Below, piece by piece: positions 28,444 through 46,851 of a DNA stretch of 64,000 nucleotides. The first letter of the stretch is position 1; every line of letters starts with the position of its first letter. The DNA is taken from assembly GCA_030262725.1 (NCBI GenBank), contig JAJSZS010000002.1, forward strand, positions 62,001 to 126,000, in the 5' to 3' direction. The position numbers and the translations under genes were made by a program. Source of the DNA: Candidatus Desulfofervidus auxilii (lineage in GTDB: Bacteria; Desulfobacterota; Desulfofervidia; Desulfofervidales; Desulfofervidaceae). The notes under the pieces were generated by a model. That model did no database searches. It had not been told where the DNA came from and saw only the letters and a program-made list of their open reading frames with translations.

Positions 28444-29421
28444 TTACTTTCCTACCCTAATTCTTGGGTCTACTAAGGCATAACTTATATCAGCAATTAA
28501 ATTGCCAAGTAGTGTCAATACTGCACCAATAACAAGACATCCCATAATCGTAGGATAATCTCTGGACATAACACTGGCATAAAATAATTGACCCATTCCA
28601 GGAATAGCAAAGATAGACTCAAAGATAACACTACCACCAATTAATCCTGGCACAGAAAGACCTAAGATGGTGATAACAGGTAAAAGGGCATTCTTTAAGG
28701 CATGTTTGTAGATTACTGCTTTTTCAGGTAAGCCTTTTGCCCTAGCAGTAAGTATATAATCTTGCCTTATTACCTCAAGCATACTGGCACGGACAAATCG
28801 AGAAAGACCTGCTAAACCACCAAAGGCAGAGACAAAAACAGGTAAGATTAAATGTTTAGTTAGATCTAAAAACTTGCTAAAAGGGTTTAGTGTTTCATAG
28901 TTTAAAGATTTAAGACCTGAAAGTGGTAGCCATCCTAATTTGATGCCAAAGAGCATCATAAGTAAAAGTGCAAGCCAAAATCCAGGTGTAGCATATCCAA
29001 TAAATACAATTACTGTTGTTATTTTATCAAAAAGGCGACCATGTTTGACAGCAGCTATTACTCCTAATGGAATAGCAACAATAAAGATAAGAAACATAGA
29101 AAGTAGATTAATGGTAATGGTTATAGGAAGACGCTCTTTGATTTTCTCCCAAACAGGTCTTCCATCAGGAGAAAAACTACGACCAAAATCTAGCTTAAGT
29201 AACCTTTTTAACCAAAGCCAGTATTGTTCATAAAGTGGTTTATCTAAGCCATAAAGCTTTTTTAATTTTTCTTGAAATTCTGGAGAAACCTTTGGATTAA
29301 ATTCAGTATAAATATCCACAGGACTGCCTGGAGCAAGATGGATCACAATAAAAGAGATAAGTGTGATACCTAAAAATAAGGGGATCATAAAAAGAAGACG
29401 CTTTAATAGATAGAAAAGCAT
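28444..29421 (-). CDS. dppB: dipeptide/oligopeptide ABC transporter permease (DppB/OppB type)
   Basis: A 325-residue DppB-type permease: [20 protein letters not shown] first helix, periplasmic loop with [17 protein letters not shown], then the conserved [20 protein letters not shown] and [15 protein letters not shown] in the EAA region. It forms the channel with DppC. The start overlaps the end of the selenoprotein gene by 19 bases, so the transporter and the redox-active-family gene are linked. Confidence 0.93.
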
Positions 29422-30092
29422 CCTTTTATATCTTTACAAAATAAGCTTCCTGTTTTCTTTTTGAAATCAACAGCAATTTTATGAGATTTAATCATAGAGA
29501 AAACATTTTGCAAGGGGATTGGCCATTTGTTTTCTAAAAGACTTACATTCATAATTTTTAATATAACAATACCACAAATATCAAATGTATAAGCAAGACC
29601 ACCCTCAAAGACCTTAGCAGCTCTTTGCAAAAAATATGGCAATTTTTGAGGTAAATAGCAGCTAGGAGATATAGTTAAATTTTTTGGTTTATCTATTGAT
29701 AAATTTTTTACCCAAAGTGCAGTTTTCCCCACTATTTCAAGACAGAGTCTTTTTCTTTTAATAAATTTTTTTAATTCATAAGGATGCCAGTTTAAAGAAC
29801 CTATTAAGTCTTTGCAAAAGGTATAGCCAAACTCTAATTCAAAATTTCTTTTTAAGATACGTACAGCTATAAGATTTTCTGGATATGGTAATAAAAATCC
29901 TAAAGCAAATGCACCACCTAAAAGCGCCCCACAAGTTAAACGCATGCCAGCCAATCCACCTCCAAATCCACCACTTGCACTTAAAATTAAATGCATTGTT
30001 TTTTTATCAAAAGCTAAACTAGCCTTAATGACTGCCTGACTTCATGTATAACCAAGGCGCATATAATGTCTTGCAGCTTCCAAAGGACTCAT
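29403..30092 (-). CDS. C_GCAxxG_C_C family selenoprotein (Sec at in-frame TGA)
   Basis: The reading frame runs 229 residues from ATG 30092 if the TGA at 30044-30042 is read as selenocysteine. Its ATG overlaps the birA stop (ATGA), which fixes the start. The TGA lies in LGYT[Sec]SQAVIKA, the place where this putative redox family has its first conserved Cys (usually NCAQAVL). The other three follow: Cys54 in CGALLG, Cys93 in FCKDLIG and Cys117. A second, degenerate stretch with FCKDIKGC fills residues 130-229. A SECIS-like hairpin follows the TGA. Without recoding, translation would start at 29996 and miss the conserved Cys. Family members are often near transporter genes; here dppBC follow. 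Function unknown. Confidence 0.85.
30007..30031 (-). promoter_or_regulatory. SECIS-like hairpin for selenocysteine insertion
   Basis: Ten bases after the TGA the mRNA can fold as UCA, bulged UU, AAGGCTA, loop GUU, UAGCUUU, UGA. The upper stem is seven perfect pairs (one G-U), the lower three. The bulged U and the GU in the apical loop are the two features SelB needs in known bacterial SECIS elements. The loop G is 23 bases after the TGA, within the usual range. Confidence 0.72.
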
Positions 30093-39680: not shown

Positions 39681-41588
39681 ATGAAACCCATTATTTTAGG
39701 CACAGCTGGACATATTGATCATGGGAAAACACAGTTAATTAAGGCTTTAACAGGTATAGATACAGATAGGCTTAAAGAGGAAAAAGAACGTGGTATTACT
39801 ATTGAATTAGGCTTTGCCTTCCTCAATTTACCAAATGGTCAACTCCTTGGTATTGTAGATGTCCCAGGACATGAAAAATTTGTCCATCACATGGTGGCTG
39901 GAGCTGCTGGAATGGATTTGGTTGCTTTAGTAATTGCAGCAGATGAAGGAGTTATGCCTCAAACAAAGGAACATTTAGAAATTTGTTCTCTTTTAAAAGT
40001 AAAACGTGGGCTTGTTGTGATTACCAAAATAGATATTGTTGAACCTGAATGGCTGGAACTTGTTGAGGAAGATGTAAAAGAATTCTTAAAAGGTACATTT
40101 TTAGAAGGGGCACCAATAGTTAAAGTTTCTTCAATAACAGGTGAAGGGATCCCTGATCTAATAAAAACTTTAGAAAAGCTTGTTACAGAAGTAGAACCTA
40201 AACCTAGTACTGGTCTTTTTCGTTTACCAATTGATCGCGTATTTACTATAAAAGGCTTTGGCACTGTAGTAACTGGTACAGCTATTGGTGGAAGTGTGAA
40301 AATAGGAGATACACTTATGATTTATCCTTCAGAAAAAAAAACAAAGGCTCGCAATATTCAAGTACATAATAAAGATGTTTCTCAAGCATTTGCTGGACAA
40401 AGAACTGCTATAAATCTTCAGGGCTTAGAAAAAGAAGAAATCAATCGAGGGGATATAATTGCTCCACCTGATACACTTATACCCTCATTTATGCTGGATG
40501 CCTTTTTAGAAATATTACCAAGTGCTCCAAAATCGTTTAAAAATCGCGCTTTAGTAAGACTTCATCTTTATACAGCCGAAATTCCAGCACAGACTGTTAT
40601 TTTAGATAAAGATGAATTAAAACCAGGTGAAACTGGTTATGTGCAGTTTCGATTAAAAAAACCTGCTGTTGCCTTACCTGGAGATAGATTTGTTATTAGA
40701 AGTTATTCACCGATAATAACCTTAGGTGGAGGCATAATATTACACCCTACACCAGCTAAACATAAAAGAATGCGTGAAGAGGTAATATCAAATCTGAAAT
40801 TATTAGAAAAAGGGAAGATAGAAGAACGCATCCTTGCCCATTTAAAAGAAGCAAGATACAATGGTCTTACTTTTAAAAATTTACAAATTTTTTTGAATGA
40901 TTTTTCTGAAAATTTAATAAATATCCTTGAAAATTTAACAAAAAATAAAAAGATTTATTTAATACATAAAGAGACAGCATTGTATCTTCATGCCCATTTT
41001 GTAGAAGAATTAGAAAAAAGAATTGTTTCTTTCTTAAAAGAATTTCATCAAAAAAACCCACTTTTACATGGCATTTCAAAGGATGAATTAAAAAGTAAAT
41101 TTTTGCCATTTCTTAAGGAAGAAGTTTTTTCCTTTCTTATTCACCATTTAGAGAGGAAAAATATTATAGTTTTAGAACAACATCTTTTAAGATTAAAAAC
41201 TCATACCATTTCCCTTACTTCTAAAGAAAAAACATTAAAAGAAAAAATTTATCATTATCTTATTGAGTCAGGTTATACTCCACCATCACCTCAAGAATTA
41301 GCTAAAAAATTAAATGAAAAAGAAGAAAAAATAAATCATTTATTGCGTCTTTTAGTTGAGGAGGGAAAAATAATTAGAGTAAAAGAAGGTTTTTATTTTG
41401 AAAAGAAACTTATTGAGACTTTAAAAGAAAAACTTATAAATTATTTAAAACAAAAAGAAACTATTACACCTTCTGAGTTCAAACATTTGACTAAAGCTTC
41501 ACGAAAATATAATATTCCACTTCTAGAATATTTTGATAGTTTAAAACTGACTATTCGCTTGGGTGATAAACGAGTATTAAGGAATTAA
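39681..41588 (+). CDS. selB: selenocysteine-specific elongation factor SelB
   Basis: SelB carries Sec-tRNA(Sec) to ribosomes stalled at UGA when a SECIS hairpin is present. The 635 residues have the EF-Tu-like GTPase (GHIDHGKT at 10-17, DVPGH at 60-64, TKID at 115-118) followed by domains II-III. From about 400 on are winged-helix domains, ending in SRKYNIPLLEYFDSLKLTIRLGDKR, which bind the hairpin. Its presence supports reading the TGA at 30044-30042 as Sec. It lies between the APC permease and valS; selA, selC and selD are not in the window. Confidence 0.95.
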   Translation: MKPIILGTAGHIDHGKTQLIKALTGIDTDRLKEEKERGITIELGFAFLNLPNGQLLGIVDVPGHEKFVHHMVAGAAGMDLVALVIAADEGVMPQTKEHLEICSLLKVKRGLVVITKIDIVEPEWLELVEEDVKEFLKGTFLEGAPIVKVSSITGEGIPDLIKTLEKLVTEVEPKPSTGLFRLPIDRVFTIKGFGTVVTGTAIGGSVKIGDTLMIYPSEKKTKARNIQVHNKDVSQAFAGQRTAINLQGLEKEEINRGDIIAPPDTLIPSFMLDAFLEILPSAPKSFKNRALVRLHLYTAEIPAQTVILDKDELKPGETGYVQFRLKKPAVALPGDRFVIRSYSPIITLGGGIILHPTPAKHKRMREEVISNLKLLEKGKIEERILAHLKEARYNGLTFKNLQIFLNDFSENLINILENLTKNKKIYLIHKETALYLHAHFVEELEKRIVSFLKEFHQKNPLLHGISKDELKSKFLPFLKEEVFSFLIHHLERKNIIVLEQHLLRLKTHTISLTSKEKTLKEKIYHYLIESGYTPPSPQELAKKLNEKEEKINHLLRLLVEEGKIIRVKEGFYFEKKLIETLKEKLINYLKQKETITPSEFKHLTKASRKYNIPLLEYFDSLKLTIRLGDKRVLRN

Positions 41589-41603
41589 TGAGAGGTGTTT
41601 AAA

Positions 41604-44264
41604 ATGGGTACTAAGCTATTAGAAAAGGGTTATAATCCAGAAAAGGTAGAAAAAAAATGGTATCAACATTGGATAGAAAAAGGTTTATTTAAAGCTAATT
41701 TAAAAGAGAAAAAGAAAGTTTTTTCCATGGTTATCCCTCCACCAAATGTTACAGGCTCTTTGCATATGGGACATGCTTTAAATGTAACATTACAAGATAT
41801 TCTTGCCCGTTATAAAAAAATGGATGGATACAATGTACTTTGGGTGCCTGGCACTGACCATGCCGGTATTGCCACTCAAAATGTAGTAGAAAAACAGCTA
41901 AAAAAAGAAGGGCTTACTCGTCACGATTTAGGTAGAGATGGATTTATTAAACGAGTTTGGAAATGGAAAGAAGAATATGGTCATCGCATTATTAATCAAT
42001 TAAAGAGATTGGGATGTGCTTGTGATTGGAGCAGAGAACGTTTCACTATGGATGATGGATTTAGTGAAGCTGTAAGAGAAGTATTTATTCAACTTTATAA
42101 AGAAGGACTAATTTACCGAGGTGATTATATTATCAATTGGTGTCCAAGGTGTCAAACAGCATTAGCAGATTTAGAAGTTGAGCATGAAGAAAGAGAAGGT
42201 GCCTTTTATTATATACGTTATTTAAGGGCTGATGGAAATGGATATATTACAGTCGCTACAACCAGACCTGAAACCTTACTTGGTGATACAGCTGTAGCTG
42301 TACATCCAGAAGATGAAAGATATAAAGATTTGGAAGGAGTAAAAGTTATTATACCAGTAGTCAAAAGAGAAGTGCCTATTATTTTTGATGATTTTGTTGA
42401 TAAAGAATTTGGTACTGGAGCACTTAAAGTGACACCTGCTCATGATCCCTATGATTTTGAAATAGGTCGTAAGCATAACTTACCTTTAGTGAAAGTAATA
42501 GATGAAACAGGAAAAATGACAGAAGAAGCAGGCCCTTATGCTGGCTTAGATAGGTTTGAATGTCGAAAAAAAATCTTAATTGATCTTGAAAAACAAGGTC
42601 TTTTAGAAAAAATAGAGCCTATTAAACATAGTGTAGGACATTGTTATCGTTGTAAAACTATTATTGAGCCATTGGTTTCGAAACAATGGTTTGTAAAAAC
42701 AAAGCCCTTAGCAGAACCAGCTATAAAGGCAGTAAAAGAAGGTAAAACACGTCTAATACCAAGTGGTTGGGAAAAAACATATTATGAATGGATGACAAAT
42801 ATTAGAGATTGGTGTATTTCTCGACAGATCTGGTGGGGTCATAGGATTCCCGCTTGGTATTGTAAGGAGTGTGGAGAAATCATTGTAGAAAAAGAAAAAC
42901 CATCAAATTGTCCAAAATGCAAATCAGAAAAAATTATACCTGAGACAGATGTTTTGGATACTTGGTTTAGCTCAGCTTTATGGCCGTTTGGAACTTTAGG
43001 TTGGCCAAAAGATACAGAGGAGTTGAAAATATTTTATCCTACTTCTGTTTTAGTAACAGGTTTTGATATCCTCTTTTTCTGGGTAGCAAGAATGATGATG
43101 ATGGGACTCCATTTTATGAAAGAAGTCCCATTTTATGATGTCTATATTCATGCACTGGTAAGGGATGAGAAAGGAGAAAAAATGAGTAAGACTAAAGGAA
43201 ATGTCATTGATCCCTTAGATATGGTAGAAAAATATGGAACAGATGCCTTAAGATTCACTTTAGTTTCATTGGCAGCCCAAGGGAGAGATATACGGCTTTC
43301 AGAAAAAAGGATAGAGGGTTATCGCCATTTTATTAATAAAATTTGGAATGCAGCCCGTTTTGTTTTAATGAATCTTGAAGAAGATACTATGCCTATAGCT
43401 GAACCAAAAAATTCAGTTGATAAATGGATTTTAAGCCGTCTTCAAACAATAATTAAAAAAGTAAGAAATAACCTAGACAATTATGATTTTGATAAAGCTG
43501 CTTATATTCTTTATCACTTTTTCTGGCATGAATTCTGCGATTGGTATTTAGAATGGATAAAGCCTGTTCTTTATCAACCTAAAACAATTGAAGAAAAAAA
43601 GATCACTCAAGGAGTGCTTTTATATACCTTAAGTGAAATCCTAAAATTGCTCCATCCTTTTATTCCTTTTGTAACAGAAGAAATTTGGCAATATTTACCT
43701 CATACAAAAGAAAGTATTTTCAAAGAAGAATATCCAAGACCAGTCACTGAACTTGAAGATAAAATTGCAGTGGAAGAAATGGAAACCATGATTGGTCTTG
43801 TAAAGACTATAAGAAATATGAGAGGAGAATTGAATGTTTCTCCTAGTATAAAAATTGAAATTATTATTTCCCCACCCAATGAAGGTATTTTAAGATGGAT
43901 TCAAAAACATGAAGAACCTATTTGTCGTTTAGCTGGTATTAAAGAGATGAATTTAAGTATAAAGGCAAAAAGACCATCTTATGCAGCTGCTAGTGTCTGG
44001 GAAGGAATAGAAATTTATATGCCACTTAAAGACATCCTTGATTTACATGCTGAAGAGAAACGTTTAAATAAGGAGATAGAAAAATTAGTTGAAGAACTTG
44101 CCTTTGTTACCAAAAAACTAGCAAATAGAGAATTTTTAAATAAGGCACCAAAAGCTGTTGTAGAAAAAGAGCATGAAAAGGCAAAAATTTTAGAGGAGAG
44201 ACTTCAAAAACTTAAAGCAAATTTAGAAAGGGTAAGAAATATCCGCCAAGAAATACAAGATTAA
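41604..44264 (+). CDS. valS: valyl-tRNA synthetase
   Basis: ValS charges tRNA(Val) and edits threonine. The 886-residue class I enzyme shows NVTGSLHMGHALN (HIGH type), the CP1 editing domain with TRPETLLGDTAVAVHPED, a zinc-like CPKCKSEK element, GEKMSKTKGN and a C-terminal coiled coil (EEKRLNKEIEKLVEELAFV). I choose the ATG at 41604 with GAGAGG upstream; an in-frame GTG at 41595 precedes it. It begins 15 bases after the selB stop and its end overlaps the convergent proC by four bases. Confidence 0.96.
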   Translation: MGTKLLEKGYNPEKVEKKWYQHWIEKGLFKANLKEKKKVFSMVIPPPNVTGSLHMGHALNVTLQDILARYKKMDGYNVLWVPGTDHAGIATQNVVEKQLKKEGLTRHDLGRDGFIKRVWKWKEEYGHRIINQLKRLGCACDWSRERFTMDDGFSEAVREVFIQLYKEGLIYRGDYIINWCPRCQTALADLEVEHEEREGAFYYIRYLRADGNGYITVATTRPETLLGDTAVAVHPEDERYKDLEGVKVIIPVVKREVPIIFDDFVDKEFGTGALKVTPAHDPYDFEIGRKHNLPLVKVIDETGKMTEEAGPYAGLDRFECRKKILIDLEKQGLLEKIEPIKHSVGHCYRCKTIIEPLVSKQWFVKTKPLAEPAIKAVKEGKTRLIPSGWEKTYYEWMTNIRDWCISRQIWWGHRIPAWYCKECGEIIVEKEKPSNCPKCKSEKIIPETDVLDTWFSSALWPFGTLGWPKDTEELKIFYPTSVLVTGFDILFFWVARMMMMGLHFMKEVPFYDVYIHALVRDEKGEKMSKTKGNVIDPLDMVEKYGTDALRFTLVSLAAQGRDIRLSEKRIEGYRHFINKIWNAARFVLMNLEEDTMPIAEPKNSVDKWILSRLQTIIKKVRNNLDNYDFDKAAYILYHFFWHEFCDWYLEWIKPVLYQPKTIEEKKITQGVLLYTLSEILKLLHPFIPFVTEEIWQYLPHTKESIFKEEYPRPVTELEDKIAVEEMETMIGLVKTIRNMRGELNVSPSIKIEIIISPPNEGILRWIQKHEEPICRLAGIKEMNLSIKAKRPSYAAASVWEGIEIYMPLKDILDLHAEEKRLNKEIEKLVEELAFVTKKLANREFLNKAPKAVVEKEHEKAKILEERLQKLKANLERVRNIRQEIQD

Positions 44265-45224: not shown

Positions 45225-45986
45225 TTAATATACTTGATTGTTTCTCCTATTTAAAAGATAATGGATAAATTCTTCTATTTCATCTATAAATTTAATTCTC
45301 TTAAGAAGCTCATGAAAATCATCTCGGTTACCGTATTTCTTTTCGTAGGTTCCTATCAGTCTATCATATTTTTCTGGGTCTGTTATAAAAGTATAATCAA
45401 CCACATGTAAAAGAATATAACGATTTGTCTCTGTTCTTAACTCGTTATCTTTATCCGTAGTTACAAAAACTAACTTTATTTCTGTCATATTTCTTCTTTT
45501 TTCAAGCTCCCTTTTCCAAAAAGCTGTTTCTGTTAATCTTTCTCTTAGACTAGTTTTGCATGATAAAATGGCTATTACTGAATTGGTCTTTTTCTTAATT
45601 ATAAGAATATCTACATCCGGAAAAATATCACACCAGTTTCTGATGGCTATTTGGTCTTTATGTAGAATTAAGGCTTCTTCCCCAATCATGACTGTAATCT
45701 TATCTCTTAACATTTTGTCATTTTTCACAATATTTTGTATATATTTAAAAACAGCATATTCATATAATGAACCCTTACAAGTTTTCCATGCTTGATCTTG
45801 ACTTCTTTGATTTGGGTAATATCTTCTAAGGATATTCCGGAGGCTATTTTCAGCTAATGAATCAAAATTTTTGAGCGCCTCCAATAAATTTCCTTGGAAT
45901 CTGCTCATTACTATATCATCGTAACCTTGTTTTAGTACTTCCAATACCTCTTTTTTACACTTAAATCCTCGTCTCACTTTAATCAC
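45225..45986 (-). CDS. type II restriction endonuclease, possibly BsaWI/CCGG-family
   Basis: A 253-residue probable type II endonuclease coupled to the methyltransferase. The active-site candidate is IFPDVDILII, then about 20 residues later ILSCKTSLRERLTETAFW. That SCK plus downstream Glu resembles the arrangement in the CCGG-recognising family (SxK followed by Glu), including BsaWI-type enzymes. The target site cannot be read from sequence; W/CCGGW or a related site is a guess. It starts at a GTG, overlapping the methyltransferase gene by 8 bases, which lets protective methylation come first. Confidence 0.72.
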   Translation of the reverse strand: MIKVRRGFKCKKEVLEVLKQGYDDIVMSRFQGNLLEALKNFDSLAENSLRNILRRYYPNQRSQDQAWKTCKGSLYEYAVFKYIQNIVKNDKMLRDKITVMIGEEALILHKDQIAIRNWCDIFPDVDILIIKKKTNSVIAILSCKTSLRERLTETAFWKRELEKRRNMTEIKLVFVTTDKDNELRTETNRYILLHVVDYTFITDPEKYDRLIGTYEKKYGNRDDFHELLKRIKFIDEIEEFIHYLLNRRNNQVY

Positions 45987-46851
45987 TCCATAACTTTTTC
46001 TGGTATATATTTGCTTCCTTTATCAATCTATTTTTAGCTAATTTACAATAATTTTTGTCTATCTCCACCCCTATTCCTTTTCTATTCAGCAATGCACATG
46101 CAATTAAAGTACTTCCACTTCCTAAAAATGGGTCTAATACAGTATCACCTACAAAACTGAAAAGCTTAATACATCTTTTGGGCAATTCAACAGGAAAAGG
46201 GGCAGGATGTCCAACTTTTTTCTTACTCTCTCCTGAAAATGTCCATAAACCATTAGTCCATTCCATAAATTCATTCCTTGTTATATCAGATTTTCCATTT
46301 CTTATTTTCTGCCACTTTTCTTTATAGAAGATAATAATAACCTCTACAGGAGCAATTACATAGGGTGCCCTTGCACTAAGCCAAGAACCCCAAGCGGTTC
46401 TTCTTGATATATTCCCTTCATTCCATATTATAGTTGAAAAATATTTCCAGCCTACTTTTTTAGCAATATTCACTATATCAGCATAAACAGTTTGAAATCC
46501 TGCTCCTTTTCTACCTTTGCTTTTATCCAAGGGTATATTTAGGCATATTCTCCCATCTGTTTTTGTCAAAGTAAATGCTTTTTTCAACCATTTTTCTGTA
46601 AATTCAAGATATTTTTCATAAGGAATATCATCTTGAAATGAATTATAATGAATATCTACATTATATGGAGGAGAAGTTATTATTAAATCAATTGAATTTT
46701 TCTTAATCAAATTTGTTGTTAAGAAATCATCATGAATTATTTTAATATTCCCTTCTTTTGTTTCAAAAAATATTTTCCTTTCTTTGGTTTTCAGTTCCAT
46801 GTTGTCTGTATTTGCTTCTATCTTTATATTTCTTCCTTCTATTTCATTCAT
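45979..46851 (-). CDS. DNA methyltransferase, beta class (probably N4-cytosine)
   Basis: A 290-residue amino-methyltransferase of the modification half of the restriction pair. The catalytic motif LIITSPPYNVDI comes before the SAM-binding DPFLGSGSTLIA, the beta-class order. An SPPY catalytic motif is common in N4-cytosine enzymes, which would suit a CCGG-type site. It lies upstream of the endonuclease with an 8-base overlap. The first 25 residues are not family-like, so the true start may be the internal Met18. Confidence 0.85.
   Translation of the reverse strand: MNEIEGRNIKIEANTDNMELKTKERKIFFETKEGNIKIIHDDFLTTNLIKKNSIDLIITSPPYNVDIHYNSFQDDIPYEKYLEFTEKWLKKAFTLTKTDGRICLNIPLDKSKGRKGAGFQTVYADIVNIAKKVGWKYFSTIIWNEGNISRRTAWGSWLSARAPYVIAPVEVIIIFYKEKWQKIRNGKSDITRNEFMEWTNGLWTFSGESKKKVGHPAPFPVELPKRCIKLFSFVGDTVLDPFLGSGSTLIACALLNRKGIGVEIDKNYCKLAKNRLIKEANIYQKKLWSD

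What the first reader, a model, noticed from the sequence alone, without database searches (positions are those of the whole stretch)
39681..41588. selB and a selenoprotein in the same 64 kb
A complete SelB with GTPase and C-terminal winged helices is encoded about 10 kb from the TGA-containing gene. This shows the organism reads UGA as selenocysteine and supports the recoding claim independently of the protein alignment. selA, selC and selD were not seen, so selB is apart from its usual partners.
Basis: partly seen in the sequence, partly recalled or inferred. Interest (0 to 1): 0.5.

Follow-up and report, generated by a model that had tools for sequence, protein, structure and literature searches.

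The report
Ordinary selenocysteine factor, complete scattered pathway
This bacterium has a normal gene for the factor that inserts selenocysteine at certain stop codons, the rest of the pathway lies elsewhere in its genome, and a nearby gene appears to use that code, so the find is sound but ordinary.

Summary
Window 39681-41588 (+) encodes a complete 635-aa SelB: TIGR00475 392 bits, cut-off 242, with GTPase, beta-barrel and winged-helix domains. In 33 aligned homologues that column is Cys in 25 and UGA in 8. Three more UGA genes were found: formate dehydrogenase, SelD itself and a FlpD/MvhD subunit. Hairpin evidence is good for SelD, mixed for the other two and weak for the window gene. The genome shares a family with bins named Ca. 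Desulfofervidaceae. selB apart from selA is not odd here: 6 of 66 genomes with both have them within 10 kb. SelB alone does not prove selenocysteine use: one relative has SelB and tRNA-Sec but no SelA hit. Verdict: correct observation, ordinary biology; C_GCAxxG_C_C is already a listed selenoprotein family.

The parts
39681..41588 (+). selB, selenocysteine-specific elongation factor, 635 aa: GTPase (res. 4-168), domain 2 (194-261), SelB beta-barrel (281-359), winged helices (450-505, 587-633)
   Evidence: TIGR00475 392 bits, cut-off 242; Pfam domains; solved SelB 5lzb aligned over residues 5-634
29403..30092 (-). selenoprotein gene: C_GCAxxG_C_C family redox protein, 229 aa with TGA read through; ATG at 30092-30090 overlaps the TGA stop of birA (30091-30089)
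   Evidence: PF09719 82.2 bits, E 4e-23; DNA read; birA by PF03099 and PF02237
30042..30044 (-). in-frame UGA, inferred selenocysteine (residue 17), at the family's first Cys
   Evidence: alignment column of 33 homologues: 25 Cys, 8 UGA; DNA checked
30006..30032 (-). candidate bacterial SECIS hairpin with a 3-nt loop that starts 22 nt after the UGA (weak in this gene)
   Evidence: -7.1 kcal/mol; 6 of 179 control Cys codons of the window do as well; z -1.62 against shuffles of 48 nt, z -0.48 for 101 nt
41595..44264 (+). valS (name given by eye from the translation), directly downstream of selB; the same kind of gene lies 1.9-3.5 kb from selB in relatives G004 and G001
   Evidence: ORFs

Best explanation
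The gene is an orthologous bacterial SelB in a bacterium with a complete selenocysteine pathway whose genes lie on separate contigs. [quoted passage not shown] SelB-GTP binds Sec-tRNA-Sec and, through its C-terminal winged helices, a hairpin just 3' of the UGA, and delivers Sec there. Targets found here are the C_GCAxxG_C_C protein 9.6 kb away, a formate dehydrogenase with a TAT-like leader (by eye), SelD itself and a FlpD/MvhD subunit. Shown: intact genes and UGA inside conserved motifs. Partly shown: hairpins at the right distance. Inferred: expression, Sec insertion, SelB-hairpin binding.
For: SelB complete. tRNA-Sec 76.7 bits, ARAGORN anticodon tca, on contig C19. SelA 637.7 bits on C16, no stops. 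SelD 385.1 bits on C5 with one in-frame TGA, at KASG[U]AAK. FdhA on C1 with one TGA, in ARI[U]HSATVAALAE. FlpD/MvhD on C15 with TGA in VGG[U]HLGECHY. C_GCAxxG_C_C column 25 Cys and 8 UGA of 33. For the own FdhA, SelD and MvhD, 1 of 179 control Cys codons has as stable a hairpin at that distance.
Against: The hairpin of the window gene is weak: 6 of 179 controls as good, z -0.48 over 101 nt with 61 of 200 shuffles as good, z -1.62 over 48 nt. Against shuffles of 48 nt, FdhA (z -0.84) and MvhD (z -1.38) are also unremarkable and G001's gene is not better than chance (z 0.19); only SelD stands out (z -2.95). FdhA scored below the TIGR01591 cut-off (207.8 of 666 bits in its best piece). The genome is in 72 contigs, so distances between the sel genes are unknown. 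No expression or protein evidence. The 33-row alignment was made with U written as C, which helps that column to align.
Confidence: 0.95

Rival explanations
1. The TGA in the C_GCAxxG_C_C gene is a plain nonsense mutation or sequencing error (pseudogene), and selB serves only formate dehydrogenase and the other selenoproteins.
For: The SECIS-like hairpin of this gene is weak (6 of 179 controls as good; z -0.48; z -1.62).
Against: The TGA sits exactly at the Cys column; G001 (another genus) and G005 (another family of the order) have TGA at the same codon, as do 5 more distant homologues; the frame after it is intact and in PF09719.
Confidence: 0.03
2. The sel genes are contamination of a metagenome bin and the organism does not use Sec.
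For: The genome is in 72 contigs, contamination estimate 1.44%.
Against: SelB lies in the middle of a 202 kb contig (C2:101690-103582) near the same kind of gene (valS, by eye) as in relatives G001 and G004; it is 71% identical to the SelB of three family members and 65% to a fourth; UGA genes lie on four contigs, C1, C2, C5 and C15.
Confidence: 0.01
3. UGA is read here as another amino acid (for example Cys by a selC*-type tRNA, or Ser) rather than Sec.
For: selC*-like tRNAs with a second SelB occur in three family members.
Against: G000 has one SelB over the cut-off; the eight best of its 20 tRNA-Sec hits hold one tRNA-Sec and no Cys anticodon (12 weaker hits, 38.4 bits or less, not looked at); SelA and SelD are intact apart from SelD's own UGA; the relatives' selC*-like tRNAs have a GCA anticodon, for Cys codons, not UGA.
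Confidence: 0.01

Closest known systems
Bacterial SelB (TIGR00475; solved SelB chains 5lzb and 4zu9)
   Same: Whole length, domains, GTPase motifs
   Different: Nothing that matters; selB stands beside valS and not beside selA
C_GCAxxG_C_C selenoprotein family (PF09719), listed in the review PMC9312934 (table passage seen)
   Same: UGA in a member of this family; here at the first conserved Cys
   Different: The protein here carries a second, diverged PF09719 stretch after the first and its start overlaps the end of birA
selC*/selB* tRNA-Cys system (review PMC7609411, passages seen)
   Same: Present in relatives G002, G003 and G004: a long tRNA with GCA anticodon and discriminator U next to a second SelB (anticodon of G002 read by eye)
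   Different: Not found in the window's own genome

Membership tests
bacterial SelB (TIGR00475) | score over the curated equivalog cut-off over the full length | tested here: met
   392.4 bits, cut-off 242.25, residues 4-634
bacterial SelB (TIGR00475) | translational GTPase domain with intact motifs | tested here: met
   PF00009 123.3 bits; GHIDHGKT, DVPGHE, TKID seen in the translation (motifs recalled)
bacterial SelB (TIGR00475) | C-terminal winged helices that bind the SECIS hairpin | tested here: met
   PF09106 60.4 bits, PF09107 68.4 bits; RNA binding itself not tested
selenocysteine-decoding trait | tRNA-Sec with UCA anticodon | tested here: met
   RF01852 76.7 bits, anticodon tca; discriminator G by eye
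selenocysteine-decoding trait | SelA and SelD | tested here: met
   637.7 bits and 385.1 bits, both over cut-off
selenocysteine-decoding trait | genes with in-frame UGA at a Cys/Sec position of their family | tested here: met
   C_GCAxxG_C_C by alignment; FdhA, SelD and MvhD by motif, the Sec positions recalled
selenocysteine-decoding trait | SECIS hairpin 3' of the UGA | tested here: inconclusive
   against 179 control codons FdhA, SelD and MvhD stand out (1 of 179 each), the window gene less (6 of 179); against shuffles only SelD does
selenocysteine-decoding trait | selenium in the protein | not testable with these tools
   needs labelling or mass spectrometry
C_GCAxxG_C_C family (PF09719) | score over the Pfam cut-off with the TGA read through | tested here: met
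   82.2 bits, cut-off 27
selC*/selB* system | second SelB beside a Cys-type long tRNA in the same genome as the window | tested here: not met
   one SelB over the cut-off in G000; no Cys anticodon among the eight best of 20 tRNA-Sec hits

The most novel reading that the evidence does not exclude
Within one bacterial family the decoding of Sec and Cys is in flux: some members add a second elongation factor (selB*) with a tRNA-Sec-shaped tRNA-Cys(GCA), while G001 keeps tRNA-Sec, SelB and a UGA at the C_GCAxxG_C_C cysteine but has no detectable SelA, so its UGA would have to be decoded by an unknown Sec synthase or as another residue.
Probability: 0.1. Interest if true: 0.6.

Novelty: new member of a known kind. 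Interest (0 to 1): 0.15.

Why it matters
It makes it very likely that the TGA gene in this window is a selenoprotein gene and not a pseudogene, so gene callers that stop at the UGA will lose it, and FdhA, SelD and MvhD likewise. For biology it adds one more lineage to the known set of Sec-using anaerobes. The family's mixed sel gene sets (a second SelB in three members, no SelA hit in one) may be worth a look; the window's own system is ordinary.

Tried and rejected
I fetched six stretches that cover 14 of the 19 and 8 of the 12 hits and scanned them for read-through frames. That found the FlpD/MvhD UGA; in two more frames (L149:920-3325, L146:7862-8356) the TGA lies before a plausible later start and I took them, by eye, as 5' extensions. 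The hits on C1, C4, C6, C8 and C13 were not looked at. So Sec in HdrA is not excluded.

A second formate dehydrogenase-like gene on C11 has no TGA in the matched parts.

Other read-through frames in 190,179 bases of G000 (window plus fetched stretches, 8.4% of the genome, chosen around hits and so no random sample): besides the four genes, the frames listed were shadows of longer genes or 5' extensions, by eye; L016:5361-5924 and L016:657-902 are only partly shadowed and I left them unassigned.

The stop count of the genome search undercounts for PF09719, because the profile begins at the cysteine: 5 genes listed with 'none' have TGA directly before the matched part.

SelA pieces below the cut-off in G031 and G053 were dropped; that of G016 was kept, and G016 counts as 'near' because of it. 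G049 counts as 'near' through its second SelB. Five genomes with SelA have no SelB over the cut-off (G014, G017, G038, G043, G064). The second SelBs of G010, G034, G049 and G076 were not looked at.

In one search the loop had to start 17-25 nt after the codon, so the distance is set by the test; and the controls come from the window, so they are a fair yardstick for the four own genes only, not for the seven genes of other, often more G+C-rich genomes.

Papers: PMC9312934, PMC7609411, PMC8762117, PMC5330540 and PMC8124441 were seen as passages found by search terms. PMC5330540 says that in genomes with unusual tRNA-Sec the selC gene was with few exceptions close to selA and selB, which is not what I see in this phylum. 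Two primary papers on such systems are not held. Searches for Desulfofervidus with selenocysteine or selenoprotein gave 1 and 0 papers, and one with formate dehydrogenase 15; these were seen as listings only.

Full report
What is there. The ORF at 39681-41588 (+) is an intact SelB of 635 aa: TIGR00475 392.4 bits against a cut-off of 242.25, the Pfam GTPase, domain 2, SelB beta-barrel and two winged-helix models, and an alignment over residues 5-634 with a solved SelB (5lzb; E. coli by recall). It is 71% identical to its counterparts in three family members, 65% to that in a fourth and 63% to that of G005 of the same order.

The missing partners. The window lies in a genome of 2,268,002 bases in 72 contigs, 99.99% complete. 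tRNA-Sec is at C19:4757-4850 (76.7 bits, cut-off 47; ARAGORN tRNA-SeC, anticodon tca). SelA is at C16:22348-23694 (637.7 bits, no stops). SelD is at C5:37264-38190 (385.1 bits, one in-frame TGA); a weaker SelD-like hit below the cut-off is at C2:134172-134858, outside the window.

The UGA genes. Read through the TGA, the 229-aa protein scores 82.2 bits. Its ATG (30092-30090) overlaps the TGA stop of birA (30091-30089), so this start lies 16 codons before the UGA. I aligned it with 32 homologues: G001, G005 and the 30 loci returned for the best matches, which found matches in 47 of 79 genomes. The column of the UGA holds Cys in 25 and UGA in 8 of the 33; the eight UGA codons were checked in the DNA. 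U was written as C for the alignment, which favours that column. Three more UGA genes are in G000: FdhA with ARI[U]HSATVAALAE, SelD with KASG[U]AAKLSP and a FlpD/MvhD subunit with VGG[U]HLGECHY. FdhA is below the cut-off of TIGR01591 but matches the three molybdopterin oxidoreductase models of Pfam. The review PMC9312934 lists C_GCAxxG_C_C, FdhA and SelD as bacterial selenoproteins, and FrhD/MvhD/VhuD as selenoproteins of archaea (passages).

Hairpins. One search asked for a hairpin whose loop starts 17-25 nt after the codon; one was found at all 11 UGA sites tested (four in G000, seven in homologues), with starts at 18-24 nt. Against 179 Cys codons of window genes scored in the same way, FdhA, SelD and MvhD are each matched by 1 control and the window gene by 6. 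For the homologues the numbers are 0 or 1 of 179 in six and 17 in G001, but these genomes differ in composition from the controls. Against shuffles of their own 48 nt, only SelD stands out (z -2.95); the window gene has z -1.62, MvhD -1.38, FdhA -0.84, the G001 gene 0.19. Over 101 nt the window gene has z -0.48. The SECIS evidence is thus supportive for SelD and weak for the window gene.

Is selB unusually placed? Of 79 genomes (own and relatives), 70 have a SelB and 71 a SelA over the cut-off, 66 both. In 15 of the 66 they are on one contig, in 6 within 10 kb. For the other 51, the own genome included, contig breaks leave the distance open. Separate sel genes are at least common among these relatives. 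In the window selB is followed directly by valS; in G004 and G001 valS lies 1.9 and 3.5 kb from selB (name by eye).

SelB is not proof alone. G001, G010, G047 and G073 have SelB without a SelA match. G001 is one contig of 2.54 Mb, 99% complete, has tRNA-Sec and the UGA in C_GCAxxG_C_C, yet neither the SelA profile nor the G000 SelA protein at E up to 10 found anything. One search had no positive control; the same profile found SelA in 72 of 79 genomes. I could not tell gene loss from an assembly or masking gap.

Second SelB in relatives. G002, G003 and G004 carry a second SelB, 36-40% identical to the first ones, beside a long tRNA with GCA anticodon and discriminator U (ARAGORN missed the G002 tRNA, read by eye). 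This matches the selC*/selB* system described in the review PMC7609411 (passages), which gives selB* for Syntrophobacterales and Desulfobacterales. In the own genome I found neither.

Verdict.

Noticed in passing
G001 (loci L108, L119, L120): Single-contig family member with SelB, tRNA-Sec(UCA) and a UGA at the C_GCAxxG_C_C cysteine but no SelA match.
   Followed up: partly
L121:3794-5833, L122:5646-7722, L123:6503-8592 (G003, G002, G004): Second SelB (36-40% identical to the first) beside a tRNA-Sec-shaped tRNA with GCA anticodon and discriminator U: a selC*/selB* pair in the window's family. G001 has such a tRNA (L112) but one SelB over the cut-off.
   Followed up: partly
L001:1501-1598, L108:1497-1594: One acceptor-stem pair of tRNA-Sec (the eighth, by eye G.G) is flagged non-standard by cmscan in G000 and G001; by sequence the same in G003 and G004.
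   Followed up: no
L145:551-1309 (-), G000:C15: FlpD/MvhD subunit with an in-frame UGA, near FAD-oxidoreductase (HdrA-like) frames in which the scan found no UGA.
   Followed up: partly
L016:9790-12166 and L128:9632-12146: A cluster that looks like two YedE-type transporters plus two other genes (names by eye) lies near selD in G000; in G001 a similar cluster follows directly after the tRNA-Cys(GCA) of the selC* type.
   Followed up: no
window 29424-29630 (-): A second, diverged PF09719 stretch in the same protein (24 bits, below cut-off).
   Followed up: no
window 45225-46851 (-): Two adjacent genes that look by eye like a DNA methyltransferase (TSPPYNVDI) and a restriction-type partner.
   Followed up: no
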